The position numbers were made by a program, and so were the translations under genes. Below, piece after piece: positions 2,311 to 39,204 of a stretch of 47,647 nt of DNA; positions within the stretch are counted from its first letter, which is position 1, and each line of letters begins with the position of its first letter. Under the pieces are notes generated by a model. The model was not told where the DNA came from. It worked only from the letters and a program-made list of their open reading frames with translations, and ran no database searches. The DNA comes from a virus. The DNA is taken from the IMG/VR virus record IMGVR_UViG_3300027730_000044, positions 1 to 47,647 of that record; one strand, written 5' to 3'.

Positions 2311-3416
2311 GAATTTCGTTTAAATATTACCTTATCAGTGTTACCATTCTTGACTATCTTATTAGAACCTATACGCTCAATTGAGCTTGACTTAGGGTTT
2401 GGAACATTCACTGAAAACCCTCTATCATTAACACCTCTAATATCGTCTAAGGTTACTTTACCAGTCGGTATAACTGGATTTCTTTGTTTTAACGATGTTT
2501 CTGGGGCTTCTGTTGGTGTTTCTGTTACTATAGGTATGGTAACGGCTTTTGTTAGTGTTTCTAGCGCTAGAGGCTCTGTAATGGGTTCTTTAGGTTTTAC
2601 GACCAATACTGGTTGTTCGTATTTTTTGCTTTCAACCTCAAAAATTCTATTGGTTATTAATATCAACGCTATTGCAAATGGGTCAAAAACAAATATTAAT
2701 AATAATATTAGTATATTAACAACCTTATCTATTGGTTGGTTGGTTAAATTTGAGATATATTTTAATGGCCCGATTTCACCAGCAACATCACTATTAGTAT
2801 TTAAGGTTAATATTTGTATGTTATAATTACCAATAGAGTCAGATAATGCAGCGTTTTTAATATTTATTGCATCTGTCTCAGCTGATAATTTATCAATCTC
2901 AGTATTAGCAATCATAATATCATTTCTAGCTCTAGACTTAGATGTATTGGTGGTCGATTCATCTAAACGCTTTTCTTGTGTCGCCCTAAGTTCTATTAAT
3001 TGGTCAATGCGTCTATTTTTATTGGTTATAATTTTTTCATTATCGGTAATTGTTTTTTCAAATAATATTTTCTTATTATCTAATACACCAATCTCACCTT
3101 CATGTATTTCAACCTTATTGGCTGTTTTTTGGTAAGCATTTGATAGGAAGCCGTAAATACCAGCTGACGTTATTACCATCATTACTATAACAGCAACCGT
3201 TGCATACGCTTTCAACACTCCTTTTAGGTCACCCCAATATCTATGTAATGCTGTTGTCGCAGCAATCTTACTAATTTCTAAAACACTAGCCATTATAATA
3301 ACAGCAGTACCAGCACCAGCAAATAACTGGCTTAAACCAAAAACTGAAAAATATCCAGCACAACCAGCAACCGCTAGGGCTAATATTAACATTAAATACC
3401 CAAATTTATATTTCAT
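2307..3416 (-). CDS. Multi-pass membrane protein with central coiled coil
   Basis: 369 residues. Three hydrophobic segments at the N-terminus (about residues 6-25, 31-48 and 70-92), a soluble charged coiled-coil-like region (95-195), and a fourth strong membrane segment at about 229-255 that contains FVFDPFAIALILI. The C-terminal 110 residues are Pro/Thr/Val-rich and look disordered. An LAVAGC lipobox-like string occurs in the first segment but is embedded in a multi-pass region, so lipidation is unlikely. The gene has its own late-type motif at 3433-3443 and follows the terminator of the sigma-factor gene. Its position before an amidase-like protein and spanin-like proteins suggests a lysis or envelope role, but it is far larger than usual holins. 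Not assigned to a family. Confidence 0.65.
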   Translation of the reverse strand: MKYKFGYLMLILALAVAGCAGYFSVFGLSQLFAGAGTAVIIMASVLEISKIAATTALHRYWGDLKGVLKAYATVAVIVMMVITSAGIYGFLSNAYQKTANKVEIHEGEIGVLDNKKILFEKTITDNEKIITNKNRRIDQLIELRATQEKRLDESTTNTSKSRARNDIMIANTEIDKLSAETDAINIKNAALSDSIGNYNIQILTLNTNSDVAGEIGPLKYISNLTNQPIDKVVNILILLLIFVFDPFAIALILITNRIFEVESKKYEQPVLVVKPKEPITEPLALETLTKAVTIPIVTETPTEAPETSLKQRNPVIPTGKVTLDDIRGVNDRGFSVNVPNPKSSSIERIGSNKIVKNGNTDKVIFKRNS

Positions 3417-3432
3417 ATATTATTCTTTATGC

Positions 3433-3443
3433 ATTATAAATAT
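3433..3443 (-). promoter_or_regulatory. Late-promoter-like motif ATATTTATAAT
   Basis: Coding strand ATATTTATAAT, 17 bases before the ATG at 3416 and directly after the terminator at 3451-3476. Exact copy of the motif found before 11386, 18625, 40625 and 45544. Confidence 0.5.
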
Positions 3444-3450
3444 CTAAAAC

Positions 3451-3476
3451 TAAAAAAGGATGCTAAACTGCATCCT
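3451..3476 (-). terminator. Rho-independent terminator after the sigma-factor gene
   Basis: Inverted repeat AGGATGC / GCATCCT (3457-3463 and 3470-3476) with a six-base loop. On the minus strand it is followed by a T-tract (the A-run at 3452-3457). It lies nine bases after the stop of the sigma-factor gene. Confidence 0.85.
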
Positions 3477-3484
3477 AATTTAAT

Positions 3485-4315
3485 TTATTCGTTTATTAGA
3501 TTGTATAGGTCGTGACTATTAAAACGTAATTTCATTAAGGCTTTATTTTTTACTTGTCGAATGCGTTCTTTGGTTAGGCCGTATCGTTCACCAATGGCTT
3601 CAAGTGTCATAGTCTCGCATTCGGTGTTTAAACCAAAATACGATTCGATAATCTCTCTTTCCCTCTCATCTAATAATGATAAAACATTATCTAATCCAGC
3701 TTTAATTCTGTCATCAACTACCAATTTATCCTCATCGTCAACCTCACTAACTAATAGTTCAATAAATTCAGTACCATCTTCACCAAGAACATCATTTAAT
3801 GACGAGTGTCTTGGATAATTAATTATTGAGACAGGTATGTTATTTCTATCCAATATATCACCATATACTGGTTCCCTTTCATTTAGGGCCTCAAACTTTA
3901 AAATTTCTTTATTTTGTGCTGATATTTTATTAATAATATTAGCTGGCAACCTAACAACCCTAGCATTTTCATTTAGACTTTGTAGTATTGATTGTTTAAT
4001 CCACCATACGGCATATGATATAAATCTAAAGCCTTTCTTATGGTCAAATCTAGTGGCAGCTTTTATTAAGCCATAATTACCCTCGTTGATTAAATCCGAT
4101 AAGGGTAACCCCTGACCCTGATACTCTTTAGCTATTGAAACTACAAACTTTAGATTTGCATTTACTAAGGTATCAATTGCTTTTTGGTCCCCTTTTACTA
4201 TTCTCTTAGCTAAGCTAAGCTCTTCTTTTTGTGTTAGAATAACTGATTTTCTAACATCTTTAAAATATATTGCAATGCTATCCTCAGCATCAAAACTTAC
4301 AAATCTTTTACTCAT
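3485..4315 (-). CDS. RpoD-like sigma-70 family sigma factor
   Basis: 276 residues, close to full length for the short primary sigma factors of Bacteroidetes, which lack the long region 1.1. Region 1.2 is at about residues 13-40. Region 2 is at about 50-120 (NLKFVVSIAKEYQGQG, DLINEGNYGLIKAATRFD, FRFISYAVWWIKQSI). A region 3-like segment follows, and region 4 is at about 212-268 with the helix-turn-helix TLEAIGERYGLTKERIRQVK. It should bind host core RNA polymerase and direct it to phage promoters. Unlike T4 gp55 it has a recognisable region 4, so it could recognise both promoter elements. It follows the UVR-motif gene and ends at a strong terminator. Family assignment is firm; promoter targets are inferred. 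Confidence 0.95.
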   Translation of the reverse strand: MSKRFVSFDAEDSIAIYFKDVRKSVILTQKEELSLAKRIVKGDQKAIDTLVNANLKFVVSIAKEYQGQGLPLSDLINEGNYGLIKAATRFDHKKGFRFISYAVWWIKQSILQSLNENARVVRLPANIINKISAQNKEILKFEALNEREPVYGDILDRNNIPVSIINYPRHSSLNDVLGEDGTEFIELLVSEVDDEDKLVVDDRIKAGLDNVLSLLDEREREIIESYFGLNTECETMTLEAIGERYGLTKERIRQVKNKALMKLRFNSHDLYNLINE

Positions 4316-4398
4316 TGTACTATCGCACTTTCATCTTTATTTTTGTTATTGTAGTTATTAAATATAAGCATTTTTTTTTAAAAGTCAAGCTTTTTAGC

Positions 4399-4863
4399 TT
4401 ATTTTCTTTGTTTTATTAGGTCTCTTAACTCAGCCGCCTTCATGTAATCTTCACGAACTAAAGCCTCATTTAGTTGGTCGTCTAAGCTTACCTTAATCTC
4501 AGTCCTTTGATAAGAATCTTTTTTCGATGATGTATCAACATCATGAATCAATTTATTCGTCATAGACTCAATATCTACCTTATTTAGAAACCCAAACAGA
4601 CCATCTGTTATTTCATCCTTTATAAAGCCAAATGCTGAAGTTTTAGAATCTAATTCAAAGATTAGAAAATTACGTTTGTTATCTGTGAAAAAATGCCTTA
4701 ACTCCACTGGTGTCATCACTGACACGAAGGTTGCAATCATTAACCCACCATGCATAACGGTATTGGGCTTAATTTCACTAATTGATTCTATTTCAACAAC
4801 ACCACCAGTTGTATTGCCTATCATTACAATACAGTAGTTCCTAAATTTACTATTATTAGTCAT
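4399..4863 (-). CDS. Small protein with C-terminal UVR motif
   Basis: 154 residues. The first 115 show no known domain and look alpha/beta. The C-terminus from about residue 126 (SLDDQLNEALVREDYMKAAE, then LRDLI) matches the UVR motif, a helical hairpin found in UvrB, UvrC, ClpC and McsA that mediates protein-protein contacts. Its partner is unknown; possibilities include host UvrABC or Clp components. The gene has a Bacteroidetes-type promoter (4884-4914) about 20 bases before the start and lies upstream of the sigma-factor gene, so it is probably expressed early. The motif is clear; any function is inference. Confidence 0.7.
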   Translation of the reverse strand: MTNNSKFRNYCIVMIGNTTGGVVEIESISEIKPNTVMHGGLMIATFVSVMTPVELRHFFTDNKRNFLIFELDSKTSAFGFIKDEITDGLFGFLNKVDIESMTNKLIHDVDTSSKKDSYQRTEIKVSLDDQLNEALVREDYMKAAELRDLIKQRK

Positions 4864-4883
4864 AGAGTTCCAATTTTATTTAT

Positions 4884-4914
4884 CAAAGGTACGATAATTT
4901 TATCGTATAACCAA
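4884..4914 (-). promoter_or_regulatory. Bacteroidetes-type promoter (TTG-N20-TACCTTTG)
   Basis: On the coding strand TACCTTTG (4891-4884) matches the -7 consensus TAnnTTTG, with TTG 20 bases upstream (4914-4912). It lies about 20 bases before the ATG at 4863. Confidence 0.65.
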
Positions 4915-4937
4915 GTCTTGTACGAATAATTTTATGC

Positions 4938-7289
4938 TTACGCTATCTTAAGAGTTGAGATGTTGTTATCTTTGGTTACAGTTATATTATTGGTCGACCA
5001 ATCTTTAACAAGGTCATTATGTGTTATCAAGAAAACAATATCATACATATCTTTTATCTTATCGAATAGCAATTTCATCTTATCAATGTTTTCAGCTGAT
5101 ATTCGACCCATTATTTCATCGAAGGTTATGAAGTTTGGCATGGGCAGCGTTGATAGCTTACCTAATACACTTCTTAACGCTAAGCTAGCTGCGGTTTTTT
5201 CGAAGCCACTAGCTGATTTTAATAATCTAGAAATATCATCCTTGACAATCAAAAACTGCACGTCATTCTTATCATCTATAAATATCTCAACATCGAAATC
5301 ACAAACATCCTCAAGCAATCTACTAATCTCTGAGTTAATGATTGGTAGTACTGAACGTAGAACCAATTTACTAACACCCTTCTTACCAACCAAGTCTATA
5401 TATATCTTAAATATACGCTCAATCTCTTCTTCTCGCTTAATTGTCTCAATTAACTTCTCTTTTGTTAAGATACTATCCCTATTGCTCTGTATATCATTAG
5501 ATACTCGCTCAAGCTTAGTTATTAACTCATCTTTGGTGCGCTCATGTACTATGATATCCGTCTTAACCCTAGACAATATGATATCAACTCGTTTATTGTG
5601 CTCAATAGCGTCTAAATTAAGGTTATATTTATTTAGGTCGGCCTTTTTTACGGTAACTTGGTTTCGTAAGCTACCTATTTCAACCTCTAAGCGGTCTTTA
5701 TCTAGTTCTAACCTATTTTTAATATCTATCCTTGACTTTATTTGGTTTAACTTTACCAATTCATCATTTAAATTAGATTGCTTTTCAATTAAACTATTCA
5801 ATTCATGTTCTAGTATTGAAATTTCAGATGAATGCTTATTGATATGTTCGGTATTATCTACATCATCAAGCTTTCTATTACATGATTGACATATACCACC
5901 AGCAATTAAACCCTTAACTACTGCCTCTAGGCGCTTGATGTTAGAAGATTTAACAGCCATATCACTAGTGCATAGCGTTAATTCCCTACTTAAATTGTAA
6001 TGTAGGTCCTCATCAAATACAATTGAAGCCATTTCAGTAATTTGAATCGCTAATTCTTCCATCTTTTTCTTTATGGAAAGTCCTTTTGTTGTTAATTCCT
6101 TAATATCTAATTCTATATTAGATGGGTTTAAGGTAGTTATTTGTACATCTACCTTTTCTTTACTATTAAATAACGAATCATTTTCCTCTTTTAATTTAAT
6201 CAAATCATTCTTGGTCTCATCTAATCTATGATTCAATGATTCCCTAAGCTCAATACCATTAGTAACTTTAGATTCATGGTCAACTATATCGTTGCTTAGT
6301 GTTATCGTATCAAATTCATTAGATTTTTTCTTCTTAGAAAATTCATTATATAATTTCCTAGCAGCAGCTTCCTTCAATTCCAGTATCTCTAACCCGATTA
6401 ACCTAGTAAGTACCTTACCAGATTCGGAATTTGTTAGACCTATTAGGTCATCTAGATTTTGTTCGTTTGCTAATACCAGCATCTCAAAATCAGCTTCGGT
6501 ACCAATAGTTTTTCTTAAGTTGGTTGTTGTTTTTTTAGCATCTTCGTCATTTAGCATCTCTTCACTGCCATCTGGTAATAACTTATAATAGTTCACGTTA
6601 TTAACAACGGTCCAACCACCACCCTTCTTAGCGGTACGTCTCATCTTACGCTCTATTATGGTTTCCTCATCTTCAATTTCAATCATACCCCTAACCGTCA
6701 ACTCATTCTTATTACTAAATGAATTGAAAATTTCCTCATTTTTATCGGTCTTGGTTGTCGTACCATGTAATAGAAACTTAATAGAATCAATTGTTAGGGT
6801 AGTTTTTCCACCCATATTGCTGGGCGTTGAATTGACCACTGTTAGGCCCCTTAGCTTGCTAAATGGTACATAATTTGACTCACCAAAAGATAAGAAATTA
6901 TCTATCATAAGCCATTTTATTGACCAATGATTATGTCTAGTTTGTGAAAGGTCAATATTTAATTCACCGTTAACCTTATCATCTAATGCTATGATTCGAT
7001 TAAAATCAACAGTCTTATTATCCCTAAGTAATACCTCTTTCATCAACGCACGTTGATACGTGGTATCCATTATATTCTCAATGTTGGCACCAGTTATTGA
7101 TATCTCCTCACCCTTATCAGTAAACTTGACTGGGTGATAATTAACACTAATGTTATTCTTATTTACACCATATTTGTTTGCAAAATATGTCCTAATCTTA
7201 TTCTTAGCATCCTTTGAATAGTTTTCTGGTCTATCACTCCAATCTACCTTAATCTTTCCAGTGCTGCTTATTGTACTCCAGTTATTCAT
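4938..7289 (-). CDS. SbcC/Rad50-like recombination endonuclease subunit (T4 gp46-like)
   Basis: 783 residues. Walker A is SNMGGKTT (about 157-164). Long coiled-coil arms flank a zinc-hook motif CQSC near residues 471-474. A variant ABC signature SGFEKTAASLALR lies near 695-707 (SGGEK is more usual), followed by Walker B/D-loop FITFDEIMG and the H-loop FLITHN. With the SbcD/Mre11-type subunit encoded at 7644-8459 it should form an ATP-dependent nuclease that resects DNA ends for recombination-dependent replication. T4 gp46 is shorter; here about 125 residues with no recognised domain precede the ABC part. The order nuclease, 116-residue protein, ATPase and the tight spacing indicate one operon. 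Confidence 0.93.
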   Translation of the reverse strand: MNNWSTISSTGKIKVDWSDRPENYSKDAKNKIRTYFANKYGVNKNNISVNYHPVKFTDKGEEISITGANIENIMDTTYQRALMKEVLLRDNKTVDFNRIIALDDKVNGELNIDLSQTRHNHWSIKWLMIDNFLSFGESNYVPFSKLRGLTVVNSTPSNMGGKTTLTIDSIKFLLHGTTTKTDKNEEIFNSFSNKNELTVRGMIEIEDEETIIERKMRRTAKKGGGWTVVNNVNYYKLLPDGSEEMLNDEDAKKTTTNLRKTIGTEADFEMLVLANEQNLDDLIGLTNSESGKVLTRLIGLEILELKEAAARKLYNEFSKKKKSNEFDTITLSNDIVDHESKVTNGIELRESLNHRLDETKNDLIKLKEENDSLFNSKEKVDVQITTLNPSNIELDIKELTTKGLSIKKKMEELAIQITEMASIVFDEDLHYNLSRELTLCTSDMAVKSSNIKRLEAVVKGLIAGGICQSCNRKLDDVDNTEHINKHSSEISILEHELNSLIEKQSNLNDELVKLNQIKSRIDIKNRLELDKDRLEVEIGSLRNQVTVKKADLNKYNLNLDAIEHNKRVDIILSRVKTDIIVHERTKDELITKLERVSNDIQSNRDSILTKEKLIETIKREEEIERIFKIYIDLVGKKGVSKLVLRSVLPIINSEISRLLEDVCDFDVEIFIDDKNDVQFLIVKDDISRLLKSASGFEKTAASLALRSVLGKLSTLPMPNFITFDEIMGRISAENIDKMKLLFDKIKDMYDIVFLITHNDLVKDWSTNNITVTKDNNISTLKIA

Positions 7290-34413: not shown

Positions 34414-35499
34414 TTAAGCTGAACAACCAAAGCACTCAAACTGAGAATCTTTTGGTTTATTAACCACTACTTCTGACACACTTAGTTTAGAATTCGCTTC
34501 CAATTTAGACTTGGTTCTGGTATAATATACACCAGTCTTTAAACCACCTTTCCAAGCGTACATCAAAGCACTAGCTATCTTACCATACTTTGCATCCATA
34601 TGGTATACATTTAATGATTGTGATTGGTCGACAAATTTATTTCTAATTATTGATAGGTCTAATAATACCCTTTGTGGTATTTCCCAAACATCCTTGTATC
34701 TAATTCTAATATCTTCTGGTATCTCAATGATATTTTGAACACTACCCTTGTTTCTAATCACTTTATCTATCATATTTGTATCCCATAGATTATTTTGAAC
34801 CAGTTCATTAACTAGATATTTGTTAATTACTAAAAACTCACCTTGACCAACACGCCTAGTGAAAAGGTTAGATGTCACAGGCTCAAATGATTCAAAAACA
34901 CCTAATAATATAGCAGAAGATGCTGTTGGCATAAGGGCGATTAATAAGCTATTATACATGGGTATTGGTTCACCAATTGGTTTCGGAGACCACCCTTCGA
35001 TATATGTTTCTCCTTTTGAATATGGACTACCTTCCCAAGCTGGATAGTTTTCACCTAATTCTTCAGCTAACTTCATTGATTCGTCAACAGCAGCCTTATA
35101 CATTGTTTCAAATATATCAGCATTCCATTTCTTGGCTTCATCACTTTCAAACGCTATCTTTTTCTTGGCAAAAAAGTCAGCTAATCCAGCAACACCAATA
35201 GCCAAAGCACGTTGGTCAATACCAGCCGATTTACTCCACTCATCACTCCACTTGTTTGTATCAATTACACGATTTAAGGCTCGTACAAGAACCCTAGTGG
35301 TTTTTTCGATAGTATCTAAGCTAGAATGTTCAGCTAAGTTTACTGATGCTAATGTGCATTGTGGTGTATATTGGGGTTTGGAAGCTTGGAAAATTTCGCA
35401 ATTATGTACTAATACATTATTAGCATAAAAATTATTAGTATTTTCCACTTGGATGTCATATACATCCATTCTTTTTTCTAGTTTGTTAATCTTAATCAT
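34414..35499 (-). CDS. nrdA: Split intein C-half + ribonucleotide reductase alpha C-terminal part
   Basis: 361 residues. Residues 1-33 are an intein C-terminal half (MIKINKLEKRMDVYDIQVEN onward; ending NNVLVHN, then Cys34 as the +1 nucleophile). Residues 34-361 are class I ribonucleotide reductase alpha starting CEIFQ. They carry the Glu of the active-site N-x-C-x-E motif, a redox Cys in PQCTLASVNL, the PTASSAILLGVFES loop, the YY pair for radical transfer (KTGVYYTRT) and the C-terminal CFGC shuttle cysteines (356 and 359). Together with the 36763-38238 product, trans-splicing would give a 716-residue enzyme. The piece is useless as reductase alone. No strong promoter lies directly upstream; it follows the endonuclease gene by 11 bases. 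Confidence 0.93.
   Translation of the reverse strand: MIKINKLEKRMDVYDIQVENTNNFYANNVLVHNCEIFQASKPQYTPQCTLASVNLAEHSSLDTIEKTTRVLVRALNRVIDTNKWSDEWSKSAGIDQRALAIGVAGLADFFAKKKIAFESDEAKKWNADIFETMYKAAVDESMKLAEELGENYPAWEGSPYSKGETYIEGWSPKPIGEPIPMYNSLLIALMPTASSAILLGVFESFEPVTSNLFTRRVGQGEFLVINKYLVNELVQNNLWDTNMIDKVIRNKGSVQNIIEIPEDIRIRYKDVWEIPQRVLLDLSIIRNKFVDQSQSLNVYHMDAKYGKIASALMYAWKGGLKTGVYYTRTKSKLEANSKLSVSEVVVNKPKDSQFECFGCSA
35401..35499 (-). other. Split intein C-terminal half (IntC, 33 residues)
   Basis: Encodes residues 1-33 with intein block F (VYDIQVENTNNFYANN) and block G (VLVHN), followed by the Cys34 extein nucleophile. The terminal His-Asn and +1 Cys needed for trans-splicing are all present. 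Matches the N-half at 36766-37074. Confidence 0.93.
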
Positions 35500-35510
35500 A
35501 ATTTGTATTT

Positions 35511-36710
35511 TTAACTGTTAATATATTCAAATTTAAATCCTTTGTATGTCTTATTTCTACCCTTACACACCGCTAAAACAGATGTTATTTTTCCATTCAT
35601 AAATTCAGCGGCAGATTTTAACGAATCAAAAATTAATTCATTACCTTCTTTATCTATTCTCTTTAATTTCCTCCGATTATTACCAATTTTAACATCAAAG
35701 TTATAATCTTCATTTTCCCACCTAAAAATATGTTCAAATGAATTATTTGTTTTACATTTTCTTCTGATAACGCCTTGATGAAAGCCAGTAAAATTACTAG
35801 CTTCAAATACATTATTAAATATAATTTCTTGTTCGGATTCAACACTTTCCTTATAATACACTAGTTTAGTAATCCTCACAATACCGTTTTTAGTTGTTTT
35901 AAACCCTCTAGGTGAATCATCAATAGGTTTTTTATAATCTAACCGTTTAGATTTAGTGTAAACTAATTCAGTATCAATATATTTAAAAAAATAACCCTTA
36001 TAACTACCACCATATTTAATACATCTATAAATTAAAGATTTAGTTTTAAATCCATATTTATTAAGTATCTCGTTAATATTTAAAATATCTATTTCTACTA
36101 ATGTTTTAGAATCAATCATAACAATTAAATGTTTAACTCTAGATTTAAAATTTTCTTTCATATTATCTATCCGTTCTTTAGTAAATTTTTTGCCTTTATT
36201 CCAATGAACATTGTTAATCTTAGCTAAATATGATGGGTTATTTTCTATCGACCTACCATACATAGGGTTTTTTCTACCTTTAGAGTTTTCACTATGTTTC
36301 TTTCTTATTTCTTCTTTTTTAGGGTTATTAGTAAAAGTGTCACCACCAGTGCCACCTATAACAATATTAGTTAATAAACCATCTTCAGTAAATCGACCAT
36401 AATGTTCAATTAATTCCTTTTCGACTTTAAACGCTTCATCTTCATTATCGGTCTCAAATATAATTTTAAAATTAGGTTTAAACCCTAAATCAATTAATTT
36501 TTTAATTGTATTAGTTTTATATGGGTTAATTTTACTACTGTGATTGTTTTTTAATGCATCAGTATAGTGTGTTAAATGTCGTTTTCTTTTATTTTTAGCG
36601 TTATAATCACCCTTACCAATATAGAAAGGTTTATAGTTTATTTCAGAGTAATTATTACTATAATCACCCATTACTCTATCGTCTAATAAAATGTAAATAT
36701 AATATCTCAT
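35511..36710 (-). CDS. GIY-YIG homing endonuclease between split-intein halves
   Basis: About 399 residues from the ATG at 36710; an in-frame ATG at 36731 would add seven residues (MYCIFIN) but lies in the loop of a large inverted repeat, so the internal start is preferred. GIY-YIG nuclease motifs YYIYILLDD and PFYIGKG are at the N-terminus, a NUMOD3-like NPMYGRSIENNPSYL segment is in the middle, and a NUMOD1-like domain (DSLKSAAEFMNG) is at the C-terminus. It lies between the gene pieces encoding the two intein halves of nrdA. It presumably cleaves intein-less nrdA and so mobilises the split intein and itself. It shares no frame with either half. Confidence 0.9.
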   Translation of the reverse strand: MRYYIYILLDDRVMGDYSNNYSEINYKPFYIGKGDYNAKNKRKRHLTHYTDALKNNHSSKINPYKTNTIKKLIDLGFKPNFKIIFETDNEDEAFKVEKELIEHYGRFTEDGLLTNIVIGGTGGDTFTNNPKKEEIRKKHSENSKGRKNPMYGRSIENNPSYLAKINNVHWNKGKKFTKERIDNMKENFKSRVKHLIVMIDSKTLVEIDILNINEILNKYGFKTKSLIYRCIKYGGSYKGYFFKYIDTELVYTKSKRLDYKKPIDDSPRGFKTTKNGIVRITKLVYYKESVESEQEIIFNNVFEASNFTGFHQGVIRRKCKTNNSFEHIFRWENEDYNFDVKIGNNRRKLKRIDKEGNELIFDSLKSAAEFMNGKITSVLAVCKGRNKTYKGFKFEYINS

Positions 36711-36722
36711 ATTAATAAATAT
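36711..36722 (-). promoter_or_regulatory. Late-promoter-like motif within inverted repeat
   Basis: Coding strand ATATTTATTAAT directly before the preferred start of the endonuclease gene (36710). It forms one arm of the inverted repeat at 36712-36766, so an RNA reading through would pair it with the other arm. Confidence 0.4.
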
Positions 36723-36766
36723 GCAGTACATGGTATAAAGTACACAACATGCTGCATATTTATTAA
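36712..36766. repeat. 15-bp perfect inverted repeat between nrdA N-part and endonuclease gene
   Basis: TTAATAAATATGCAG (36712-36726) and CTGCATATTTATTAA (36752-36766) are perfect reverse complements with a 25-base spacer that contains a further GTAC...GTAC pair. The repeat covers the stop codon of the nrdA N-part (36763-36765) and ends one base before the endonuclease start. It could be a transcription attenuator or a translation-blocking hairpin. There is no G/C-rich stem or clean T-tract, so it is not a standard terminator. Confidence 0.8.
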
Positions 36767-38238
36767 TTAAAGTTAGTATCTAATTCATCATCTTCAAGTA
36801 AATCACAAGCCATAACATAACCTCTATTTACGGTATAGATTTGATGGTCTGGTGTACAAACTATTTTAATACCTTTTTCTTCATCAACTACTTCAATTAC
36901 TTCAGCGTTTTCTTTAGTTTTAATTGCACCTAATATTGGTTGAAAAGTATTATCTTGACTCAGTACAAATAAGTTCTTATCATTTTCAAATCTATCGGTA
37001 ATATCCCCCAAGGTTACCTTTTCAATACCCCCATTTTCGTTAATTATAGTTATAATAGTTTCACCATCCAAACAACATAAATTTGATTGTTTTATCGGAC
37101 CAATATTACTTTGCATATTACGCTTATTAGCGTTATCTTTAAACATAACATATGGTCGACCACTTTCCACCTGAGACTTTATTATTGAATCAAAGATATC
37201 TTTAGGGTTAACTTTTTTACCTAATCCTAAATCAACCGCTTTTTGGTATTCTTCATCAAATTCGGAACCCCATAGGTCATAAAGTGGTTTTAAGCCAGCT
37301 TTTTTTAAGTCATTAGGGCAAAATAAATACCAAGCTTCATTATTCTCCAATTTCTTCATGAAAAGGTCATTTATAATAACCGATGTGAATAAATCACGAC
37401 TTCTCATTTGCTCATCACCAATGGGTAATGTTAAGTTAAGGAAATCAAAGATATCCCTATGCCATAGAGATAGATATAAAGCACAACTACCAGAACGAGA
37501 ACCTTGCTTATAAAATCGCATCTTGCTCTGAACCATATCGGCTAACCTAACTACACCACCAGCGTTGCCTTGGAACGATTCTACGATACTCTCTTTGCTT
37601 CGTAATGGGTCAATCAATAGTCCAATGCCAGAACCCTCCTTAGAGGCCGCAGAAATCTTTGTAAGCGTGTTTTCAATTCCTTCAAATGAATCATCTTCTA
37701 AGTGTGTAAGATTACAACTAATCATACCACCTCTTTTATCGATACCAGCGTTTGTATATGTTGGTGTTGCAAAGTTACCTCTTTTATTGGTTAATTCTTC
37801 CAATAATGCAGACTTAGACTTATCATCGTCACCAAATAAATGATTTGCAACCCTTAGATACATACAAGAAGGTAATTCAATTGGGGTTTTCTTATCATCC
37901 CTCATTGAATACTTGCTTAAGAATGTAGTTGCGGCAAAAAAATCATATGTTAAGTCAACTGGTTGTAATTCCTTATTAATTAACTTAGATTGACGGCTTA
38001 ATAAAATACGGCCACCTAATAAAGAATAATCTGGGTGTTGTATTATCTTATCAGCCGATTTAAACGCTATTATTTCATCAATTTCCGTTGTTGTGATATT
38101 ATCACTAATCAATGGTATTACTTCTTGAAATAAAAGGTCGCTATCAACCAGTAATCCAGCAGCTTGTGTCTTGATTCTCGTAAGAATCTTATTAGGCATA
38201 AATGCCTGTGATGTTTTATCTCTCTTTAAAATTCGCAT
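36763..38238 (-). CDS. nrdA: Ribonucleotide reductase alpha N-terminal part + split intein N-half
   Basis: 491 residues. Residues 1-388 are class I ribonucleotide reductase alpha: an N-terminal ATP-cone-like region (MRILKRDKTSQAFMPNKI), the redox Cys in GGMISCNLTHLEDD, substrate-loop regions (GSGIGLLIDPLRS, GSRSGSCALYLS), ending PIKQSNLC with the catalytic Asn and Cys388. Residues 389-491 are an intein N-half starting at Cys389 (CLDGETIITI) with block B CTPDHQIY. It reduces ribonucleotides to deoxyribonucleotides with the beta subunit (38251-39204), after trans-splicing to the product of 34414-35499. It is 12 bases downstream of nrdB. Confidence 0.93.
   Translation of the reverse strand: MRILKRDKTSQAFMPNKILTRIKTQAAGLLVDSDLLFQEVIPLISDNITTTEIDEIIAFKSADKIIQHPDYSLLGGRILLSRQSKLINKELQPVDLTYDFFAATTFLSKYSMRDDKKTPIELPSCMYLRVANHLFGDDDKSKSALLEELTNKRGNFATPTYTNAGIDKRGGMISCNLTHLEDDSFEGIENTLTKISAASKEGSGIGLLIDPLRSKESIVESFQGNAGGVVRLADMVQSKMRFYKQGSRSGSCALYLSLWHRDIFDFLNLTLPIGDEQMRSRDLFTSVIINDLFMKKLENNEAWYLFCPNDLKKAGLKPLYDLWGSEFDEEYQKAVDLGLGKKVNPKDIFDSIIKSQVESGRPYVMFKDNANKRNMQSNIGPIKQSNLCCLDGETIITIINENGGIEKVTLGDITDRFENDKNLFVLSQDNTFQPILGAIKTKENAEVIEVVDEEKGIKIVCTPDHQIYTVNRGYVMACDLLEDDELDTNFN
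36766..37074 (-). other. Split intein N-terminal half (IntN, 103 residues)
   Basis: Encodes residues 389-491: Cys1 and block A (CLDGETIITI), a hydrophobic beta region, and block B with the Thr-x-x-His motif TPDH, ending DLLEDDELDTNFN then a stop. No endonuclease domain is fused. The splice junction is codon-exact between Cys388 and Cys389. Confidence 0.93.
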
Positions 38239-38250
38239 AGTTATATTTGT

Positions 38251-39204
38251 TTAAAAATCTTGTTCAAAAATACCCTCAGTACTTGTTGGTATGTCAACCC
38301 TAGTATATTCACCTTCTCTTTTCTCAAAGAAGTTATTCTTAGCTGATAAACCAATTCTAGACATATAGTCTAATGGGTTTGTAACCATAAATTCTCTTTC
38401 ACAACCGAAGTCATTAAGAACAATATCAGTAACATATTGTACGTACTTAACCATATCATTTTTTGTTAAGCCTTGTAGTCCGTCTGGCATACTATTTTCA
38501 ACAAAGACCTTCTCAACCTCATAACAACCCAATATAATATTTCGCAATTCATCCTTGGATAATTTATACTCATCTTTTAAATAATTGTTGTATAAATATA
38601 AAGCAAATTCATAGTGAGCTGTTTCATCACGTAAAATCAATTCATTCATGGCTGCAAGACCTGGCATTTTATTTCTACTTCTAAACCAGAAAACTCCAGA
38701 AAAAACGCTAGAAAAAGCTATACCCTCAACACAAGCAAACGCAACCAATCTATGTGAAAAAGACGGGTGTTGTATCCAAGTCTCAGCCCATTCAGCCTTT
38801 GTTGCAACAGCAACGTTGGTATCCATTGAATGGAAAAGTTCATCTCTTTCTGCTAGATTTTGTATAAACGTTTCAATCAATAAAGAATAACCATTTGCAT
38901 GTACTTGTTCGATAAACGTTTGGTGACCATAAAAATACTGTGCCTCTAGTATTTCAACTTCACGTAAGAAATTTGTAGCTAGATTATCAATGACCAATCC
39001 ATCAGATACCGCAAAAAATGCTAGTATATTCTTTAGGTATTGCTTCTCATTATCTTTTAGCTCATCATATTTATCCTTTGATAAATCAGTTTCTTCAGCA
39101 ACCCAAGTCTGGGATTCCGCACCTTTATATTTTTGCCATAAATCATTGTGAATGATTGGAAATATAACATATCTCTTCTTTAATGCTTTGTCTTTTAAAT
39201 ACAT
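38251..39204 (-). CDS. nrdB: Ribonucleotide reductase beta subunit, class I
   Basis: 317 residues of the ferritin-like NrdB fold. Metal and radical residues are visible: a carboxylate in WVAEETDLSKD (around residue 38), Glu99, His102 and Tyr106 in FIEQVHANGYS (E-x2-H-x3-Y), Glu in CVEGIAFSSVF and Glu/His in LILRDETAHYEF. It generates the tyrosyl radical used by NrdA. It precedes the fractured nrdA by 12 bases and follows the helicase gene by 14, so dNTP supply and replication are co-expressed. The C-terminus ends GIFEQDF, of the type that docks to NrdA. Intact, unlike the alpha subunit gene. Confidence 0.95.
   Translation of the reverse strand: MYLKDKALKKRYVIFPIIHNDLWQKYKGAESQTWVAEETDLSKDKYDELKDNEKQYLKNILAFFAVSDGLVIDNLATNFLREVEILEAQYFYGHQTFIEQVHANGYSLLIETFIQNLAERDELFHSMDTNVAVATKAEWAETWIQHPSFSHRLVAFACVEGIAFSSVFSGVFWFRSRNKMPGLAAMNELILRDETAHYEFALYLYNNYLKDEYKLSKDELRNIILGCYEVEKVFVENSMPDGLQGLTKNDMVKYVQYVTDIVLNDFGCEREFMVTNPLDYMSRIGLSAKNNFFEKREGEYTRVDIPTSTEGIFEQDF

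What the first reader, a model, noticed from the sequence alone, without database searches (positions are those of the whole stretch)
37066..37083. Intein insertion exactly at the radical cysteine of ribonucleotide reductase
The N-part ends QSNLC and the C-part starts CEI after the intein, giving SNLC-C-EI. In class I enzymes (E. coli NrdA Asn437, Cys439, Glu441) this N-x-C-x-E motif is the catalytic triad. The intein therefore separates the thiyl-radical Cys from its Glu partner by one peptide bond. Insertion at the most conserved codons protects the element from loss and means the reductase is inactive until spliced. The residue between Cys and Glu is itself Cys, as demanded by +1 chemistry.
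Basis: partly seen in the sequence, partly recalled or inferred. Interest (0 to 1): 0.72.

Follow-up and report, generated by a model that had tools for sequence, protein, structure and literature searches.

The report
Split intein at reductase's radical cysteine
In this phage the gene for the DNA-building enzyme ribonucleotide reductase is cut in two right after its catalytic cysteine by a mobile split intein (two protein halves that join the enzyme and cut themselves out) with its own DNA-cutting enzyme; this kind of element is known, but relatives indicate that it rewrites the amino acid next to the catalytic cysteine when it moves into a new gene.

Summary
On the minus strand 37066-37083 reads NLC|CLD; the splice point is 37074/37075. 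The spliced product (QSNLC+CEIFQ) aligns with E. coli NrdA N437, C439, 440 and E441. It is a split intein: IntN ends at a stop codon, a freestanding GIY-YIG/NUMOD endonuclease gene follows, and IntC starts the second nrdA gene. This is the "fractured gene" arrangement; the closest known intein is NrdJ-1, at the equivalent site (NPC|SEI). So: a new member of a known kind.

Comparison adds three points. (1) Of 57 intein-free relatives, 56 have Ile at +1 and one Cys; all window-type alleles with a readable C-junction have Cys, so the intein overwrites this residue (6 of 6 independent pairs). In Klebsiella phage KP13-7 the change is Gln to Cys. (2) Most related split inteins sit one codon upstream (SNL|C), making the radical Cys itself the splicing nucleophile; the window clade's register differs by one codon. 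(3) Three phages share 99-100% identical intein and endonuclease DNA in nrdA genes only 77-78% identical: recent homing of the whole cassette.

Splicing, pre-splicing inactivity and the endonuclease target are inferred, not shown.

The parts
37075..38238 (-). NrdA N-extein (388 aa): ATP cone, all-alpha domain and first part of the barrel; ends ...KQSNLC with the radical Cys (E. coli C439)
   Evidence: Pfam PF02867, PF00317, PF03477; alignment to E. coli NrdA
37066..37083 (-). The reported site: NLC|CLD, N-extein/IntN junction at 37075/37074
36763..37074 (-). IntN, 103 aa CLDGETII...DTNFN plus stop; Cys1, block B TPDH
   Evidence: TIGR01445; NrdJ-1 E 5.9e-16
36706..36768 (-). RNA hairpin over the IntN stop and the start of the endonuclease gene (likely endonuclease start ATG at 36710)
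   Evidence: -22.8 kcal/mol, z -4.4; conserved in 6 cassettes with a few compensatory changes
35511..36731 (-). Freestanding GIY-YIG homing endonuclease gene (406 aa from the first ATG; 399 aa from MRYYIYIL), C-terminal NUMOD-like DNA-binding modules
   Evidence: PF22945 E 2.5e-8, PF22083 E 9.5e-6; moves together with the intein
35401..35499 (-). IntC, 33 aa MIKINKLEKRMDVYDIQVENTNNFYANNVLVHN
   Evidence: TIGR01443; PF14890 positions 124-155
34414..35400 (-). NrdA C-extein (328 aa), starting C(+1)-E-I; ends ECFGCSA
   Evidence: PF02867 213-523; C462, Y730, Y731 equivalents present

Best explanation
A mobile split intein with a freestanding endonuclease ('fractured gene' element) sits in phage nrdA directly after the radical cysteine. 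SHOWN from sequence: two separate genes, NrdA(1-388)-IntN and IntC-NrdA(389-716), with a complete set of class-1 splicing residues (Cys1, TPDH, terminal His-Asn, +1 Cys) and a GIY-YIG/NUMOD endonuclease gene between them; the whole cassette has recently moved between diverged phage nrdA genes. INFERRED: the two proteins associate through IntN and IntC, trans-splice, and release an intact class I NrdA (SNLCCEI) that gains its active site only on splicing; the endonuclease cuts intein-free nrdA at or just downstream of this codon during mixed infection, and repair copies IntN-endonuclease-IntC and the +1 Cys codon into the recipient, replacing its native residue 440 (Ile here). A hairpin at the endonuclease start probably keeps its translation low or late, as for T4 endonuclease genes.
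For: Junctions and splicing residues. Catalytic-site alignment. HINT fold of a relative's IntN-IntC read-through (AlphaFold pLDDT 71) with NrdJ-1 as top structure hit, E 2.8e-9. Empty sites: 57 intein-free relatives, +1 = Ile in 56, Cys in 1. Cassette sharing: L047, L073 and L085 have IntN/endonuclease/IntC 99.4-100% identical while flanking exteins are 77-78% identical. Register-b inteins are one clade (100/99) but scattered on the extein tree (at least 6 changes forced). Independent pairs: intein and Cys440 go together in 6 of 6 (sign test p 0.031). Co-conversion: L073 against its nearest intein-free relative differs by one base in the last 46 upstream but by a cluster of changes in the first ~33 downstream, the first 22 of which match L047. 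Same element in isolated Klebsiella phage KP13-7 (SNLC|C...HN|CEI with GIY-YIG between the halves), whose 90-97% identical intact relatives have Gln.
Against: No splicing, RNR or cleavage assay. One intein-free relative (L063) and yeast Rnr1 have Cys at 440 without an intein, so Cys440 alone does not prove intein history. The endonuclease AlphaFold model failed (pLDDT 49), so its target recognition is unknown. p 0.031 rests on only six pairs, on a 'quick' tree, with the trait noticed before the test.
Confidence: 0.9

Rival explanations
1. Cys440 came first: the intein invades only nrdA genes that already have Cys (or Ser) at 440, rather than overwriting the native residue.
For: L063 and yeast Rnr1 have SNLCCEI without an intein; L099's intein sits where most intein-free relatives have native Ser (40 SEI).
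Against: Nearest intein-free relatives of window-type alleles all have Ile; KP13-7's intact relatives (L253-L257) have Gln. Needing Cys first would need many parallel Ile-to-Cys changes.
Confidence: 0.1
2. The halves work as a two-piece reductase without splicing, as in Aeromonas phage Aeh1.
For: Aeh1 NrdA, split by mobE without an intein, is active (PMC2988022).
Against: Both intein halves and all splicing residues are intact and conserved across cassettes; the cut falls inside the catalytic N-x-C-x-E motif.
Confidence: 0.04
3. The locus is a decaying, non-functional nrdA.
For: Phage nrdA genes with inteins can decay (Campylobacter phages, PMC3653736).
Against: All three ORFs are open; catalytic Cys, Tyr and tail cysteines are kept; nrdB is intact next door; exteins are 75-88% identical to intact relatives.
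Confidence: 0.03
4. The intein begins one residue earlier (CCLDGET...), giving SNLCEI after splicing, that is, the same register as the majority.
For: Two Cys codons in a row make the register ambiguous by eye; most related inteins start at the NLC cysteine.
Against: The product would be one residue short and would lose N-x-C-x-E; the IntN profile and all relatives align with the second Cys as Cys1; in L099 the +1 residue is Ser, which fixes the same register.
Confidence: 0.02

Closest known systems
NrdJ-1 split intein (marine metagenome; PDB 8ubs)
   Same: Best sequence and fold hit; split in the same place; sits right after the catalytic Cys of a ribonucleotide reductase (native exteins NPC|SEI, PMC13123727)
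   Different: NrdJ-1 has +1 Ser; here the host is a class I NrdA and +1 is Cys replacing Ile; the order of origin of the two is unresolved (AU p 0.25-0.44)
'Fractured genes' with split inteins and endonuclease genes (Dassa et al. 2009, doi 10.1093/nar/gkp095; paper not held, known here from citing papers and own knowledge)
   Same: Split intein halves in two genes with a freestanding homing endonuclease gene between them; nrdA and nrdJ among the targets (cited in PMC3653736)
   Different: Here the phage contig, GIY-YIG/NUMOD endonuclease, intein-free alleles and transfer evidence are documented; no difference in principle
Inteins at SNL|C of phage NrdA (Caulobacter phage CcrSwift, annotated; Acinetobacter phage SH-Ab 15599; many viral contigs)
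   Same: Same catalytic motif; related HINT domain
   Different: One codon upstream: the radical Cys is the +1 nucleophile and no extein residue changes; CcrSwift and SH-Ab 15599 carry continuous inteins
Aeromonas phage Aeh1 nrdA split by mobE
   Same: nrdA in two genes with a homing endonuclease gene between; RNA hairpin at the endonuclease start (PMC2988022)
   Different: Aeh1 has no intein

Membership tests
Class 1 intein | Cys/Ser/Thr at position 1, block B TxxH, C-terminal His-Asn, Cys/Ser/Thr at +1 | tested here: met
   C1, T74-P-D-H77, H32-N33 of IntC, +1 Cys
Class 1 intein | HINT fold | tested here: met
   Read-through relative L068 modelled, 40 PDB hits at E<=0.001, all listed ones inteins or intein-like domains; model confidence moderate and the C-terminal 13 residues below 50
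Class 1 intein | Protein splicing activity | not testable with these tools
   Needs expression and mass spectrometry
Split intein / fractured-gene element | IntN and IntC in separate reading frames of one host gene with a freestanding endonuclease gene between them | tested here: met
Mobile (homing) element | Present and absent alleles at one site, and near-identical element in diverged hosts | tested here: met
GIY-YIG homing endonuclease | GIY-YIG domain plus DNA-binding modules | tested here: met
   PF22945 above cut-off (34.5 against 27); PF22083 just below cut-off (25.5 against 27), NUMOD3 below cut-off
GIY-YIG homing endonuclease | Cuts the intein-free site | not testable with these tools
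   Only indirect: short downstream co-conversion tract
Class I ribonucleotide reductase large subunit (NrdA) | N437/C439/E441, redox pair C225/C462, Y730/Y731, ATP cone | tested here: met
   nrdB adjacent
NrdJ-1-type register (insertion after the catalytic Cys) | N-extein ends with the catalytic Cys | tested here: met
NrdJ-1-type register (insertion after the catalytic Cys) | Common descent with NrdJ-1 of this register | tested here: inconclusive
   AU p 0.25 and 0.44; long branches

The most novel reading that the evidence does not exclude
Two lineages of related split inteins compete for the same catalytic codon of ribonucleotide reductase in registers one codon apart. One uses the radical cysteine itself as the splicing nucleophile and leaves no trace; the other, arising where residue 440 is natively Ser or by a one-codon slip, has escaped the need for a native nucleophile by carrying its own +1 Cys codon and imposing it on each new host, so that homing mutates the enzyme next to its radical site.
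Probability: 0.6. Interest if true: 0.55.

Novelty: new member of a known kind. Interest (0 to 1): 0.42.

Why it matters
Split inteins such as NrdJ-1 and gp41-1 are valued protein-engineering tools and came from this kind of element; this clade offers at least 9 further IntN/IntC pairs with a +1 Cys. The intein-bearing, intein-free and one-codon-shifted alleles in closely related phages, and in the isolated Klebsiella phage KP13-7 and its sequenced intact relatives, make two open questions testable at the bench: how an intein changes its insertion register, and whether homing can impose an amino-acid change in an essential active site.

Tried and rejected
AlphaFold of the endonuclease gave pLDDT 49 and was not searched further. 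A first independent-pairs run left residue 440 blank in intein-free rows and was discarded; it was repeated with the residues filled in. A T4-type late promoter (TATAAATA) in the window's hairpin was looked for and not found; the window has only AATAAATA there, although 7 of 26 cassettes overall have TATAAATA in this leader (1.4 expected). A T4 portal search used to type the phage found nothing, but its control rang nowhere either, so it is uninformative. Whether L063's intein-free CC is a scar left by a lost intein could not be decided. The founding paper (Dassa 2009) is not in the library.

Full report
What is there. The window's minus strand encodes NrdB (38251-39204), then nrdA in two genes. 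The first (36763-38238) ends ...KQSNLC followed by 103 intein residues CLDGETII...DTNFN and a stop. A 406-codon ORF follows (35511-36731), then a gene (34414-35499) that opens with 33 residues MIKINKLEKRMDVYDIQVENTNNFYANNVLVHN and continues CEIFQ... to the end of NrdA. The cited coordinates 37066-37083 translate as NLCCLD. Pfam and NCBIfam place the ATP cone, all-alpha and barrel domains on the two exteins and intein N- and C-terminal regions on the expected residues. PHROGs name the neighbour NrdB, and further on a DnaB-like helicase, a UvsX-like recombinase and baseplate wedge genes: a large tailed phage.

Catalytic site. The spliced protein was aligned with E. coli NrdA taken from MG1655. 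N437, C439 and E441 fall on N386, C388 and E390; residue 440 (Leu in E. coli) is Cys389. C225, C462, Y730 and Y731 also have their equivalents. In the PDB alignments human RRM1 has SNLCT and yeast Rnr1 SNLCC at this place. The roles of these residues are established RNR knowledge (thiyl radical in all classes: PMC6370689, PMC8463856).

It is a split intein. IntN's only PDB sequence match is NrdJ-1 (E 5.9e-16). A relative (L068) has lost the endonuclease so that IntN's TAA and IntC's ATG are 15 bases apart and in frame; read through, it gives a 142-residue chain whose AlphaFold model (pLDDT 71) has NrdJ-1 as best structural match and other inteins below it. NrdJ-1's native exteins are NPC and SEI (PMC13123727), the class II counterpart of NLC|xEI; this correspondence is inferred from the motif.

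Intein-free alleles. A viral-contig search with the C-part gave 73 loci. In 57 without an intein the +1 residue is Ile in 56 and Cys in one (L063). Window-type alleles with a readable C-junction (L001/L088, L024, L047, L061, L068, L073, L085/L095, L090, L097) all read SNLC|intein|CEI. On a tree of the exteins these alleles are scattered (at least six changes forced by well supported branches), while their inteins form one clade (100/99). In six independent pairs intein and Cys440 go together six times (p 0.031). One clade of nearly identical nrdA genes holds all three states: intein after the Cys (L090), intein before the Cys (L125) and no intein with Ile (L008-L012).

Recent movement. L047, L073 and L085 share IntN (99.4-100%), endonuclease (99.5-99.8%) and IntC (100%) at DNA level, but the flanking nrdA is only 77-78% identical. 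L073 against its nearest intein-free relative L038 differs at one base in the last 46 upstream, and then at a cluster of positions within about 33 bases downstream; the first 22 downstream bases equal L047's. The string TTTTTCAAGCTTC just downstream is in 5 of 8 intein-bearing alleles and 3 of 57 intein-free ones. This is what repair from an intein-bearing template with a short, mostly downstream tract would leave, and it must include the +1 codon. The endonuclease target is therefore most likely at or just downstream of the insertion point; this is inference.

Two registers. A profile search with IntN gave 80 loci kept of 194 candidates. Apart from the window clade and L099-L102, those whose start is readable are inserted one codon upstream: SNL|C...HN|CxEI, as are Caulobacter phage CcrSwift (where the record itself annotates the intein so) and Acinetobacter phage SH-Ab 15599. 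There the radical Cys is itself the +1 nucleophile and the spliced sequence equals the intein-free one. L099 has SNLC|...|SEI, and most of its intein-free relatives have native Ser (40 SEI, 10 AEI, 8 TEI, 2 VEI). L099 is sister to the window clade, and both are nested among upstream-register inteins, so a one-codon shift is likely, possibly by way of a host with Ser440. Whether NrdJ-1 and KP13-7 share that shift is unresolved (AU p 0.25-0.44). Rooting is by midpoint, so direction is inferred.

A cultured case. The only isolated phage with a related IntN in 50,697 records is Klebsiella phage KP13-7. Its nrdA, annotated in part as hypothetical proteins, has SNLC|CVTGETLV..., a GIY-YIG gene, and ...VHN|CEIDLP. 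Intact close relatives (phiKp_21, K64-1, RaK2; Escherichia phage 121Q and Erwinia phage pEa_SNUABM_50 further off) have Gln at this residue: the same overwriting in another lineage, Gln to Cys.

Endonuclease and its control. The window's ORF matches the LEM-3-like GIY-YIG domain (above cut-off) and, just below cut-off, an I-HmuI NUMOD-like domain. Other cassettes carry GIY-YIG genes of other types or genes with weak TnsA-like/phage-endonuclease-I-like matches; in several the gene is reduced or gone while both intein halves stay intact. A hairpin covers the endonuclease start in the window (z -4.4), is kept in six window-type cassettes with two compensated pairs, and hairpins of unrelated sequence occupy the same place in many other cassettes. 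T4 endonuclease genes and Aeh1 mobE are held back by such hairpins (PMC2988022); the same role here is inferred.

Verdict. Observation confirmed; interpretation right on the main point, with unproved parts (inactivity before splicing). The element is a new member of a known kind. What is less ordinary is the one-codon register difference and the imposed Cys next to the radical site, which the contigs support and the bench has not tested.

Noticed in passing
L068:3042-6562: This nrdA seems to carry three inteins: a mini-intein at the Cys225 equivalent (GMIS|C...VVHN|CNLTH), the HEase-less split intein at the radical Cys, and a third, apparently split, at PTAS in the substrate-binding loop.
   Followed up: partly
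L252:1463-6993 (Klebsiella phage KP13-7): nrdA is in pieces: a break at SCSQG with an HNH-like ORF, the split intein after the radical Cys, and a second split intein at MPGE|CQSW...HN|TSSQ with +1 Thr and another ORF between; all annotated as hypothetical proteins or partial nrdA.
   Followed up: partly
L006 (about 3105-4352), L070/L071 (about 3315-5000), L073 (about 4440-6200): Further insertions in related nrdA genes at the Cys225 or PTAS positions, contents not examined.
   Followed up: no
L117, L118, L122, L131, L137, L157, L163: TATAAATA (T4 late-promoter consensus) lies in the hairpin leader of the endonuclease gene in 7 of 26 cassettes (1.4 expected by mononucleotide shuffling), suggesting late expression as for I-TevI.
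   Followed up: partly
window 3442, 11408, 15549, 18647, 33881, 40666 (minus strand): TATTTATA lies 9-33 bases before six gene starts on the coding strand (19 copies on that strand, 7 on the other); it may be this phage's own promoter motif.
   Followed up: partly
L249 (Cloacimonadota MAG contig): A split nrdA-like gene with IntN and IntC and no room for an endonuclease gene, upstream register (GNL|C...HN|CVES), in a contig binned as bacterial.
   Followed up: partly
L001 (IMGVR_UViG_3300028581_000014, 142 kb): Identical to the window over the 11,083 bases held; the same sample yielded L047, another phage contig with a window-type cassette in a diverged nrdA.
   Followed up: partly
L063:5001: Intein-free nrdA with SNLCCEI; could be a scar of a lost intein or an independent change.
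   Followed up: no
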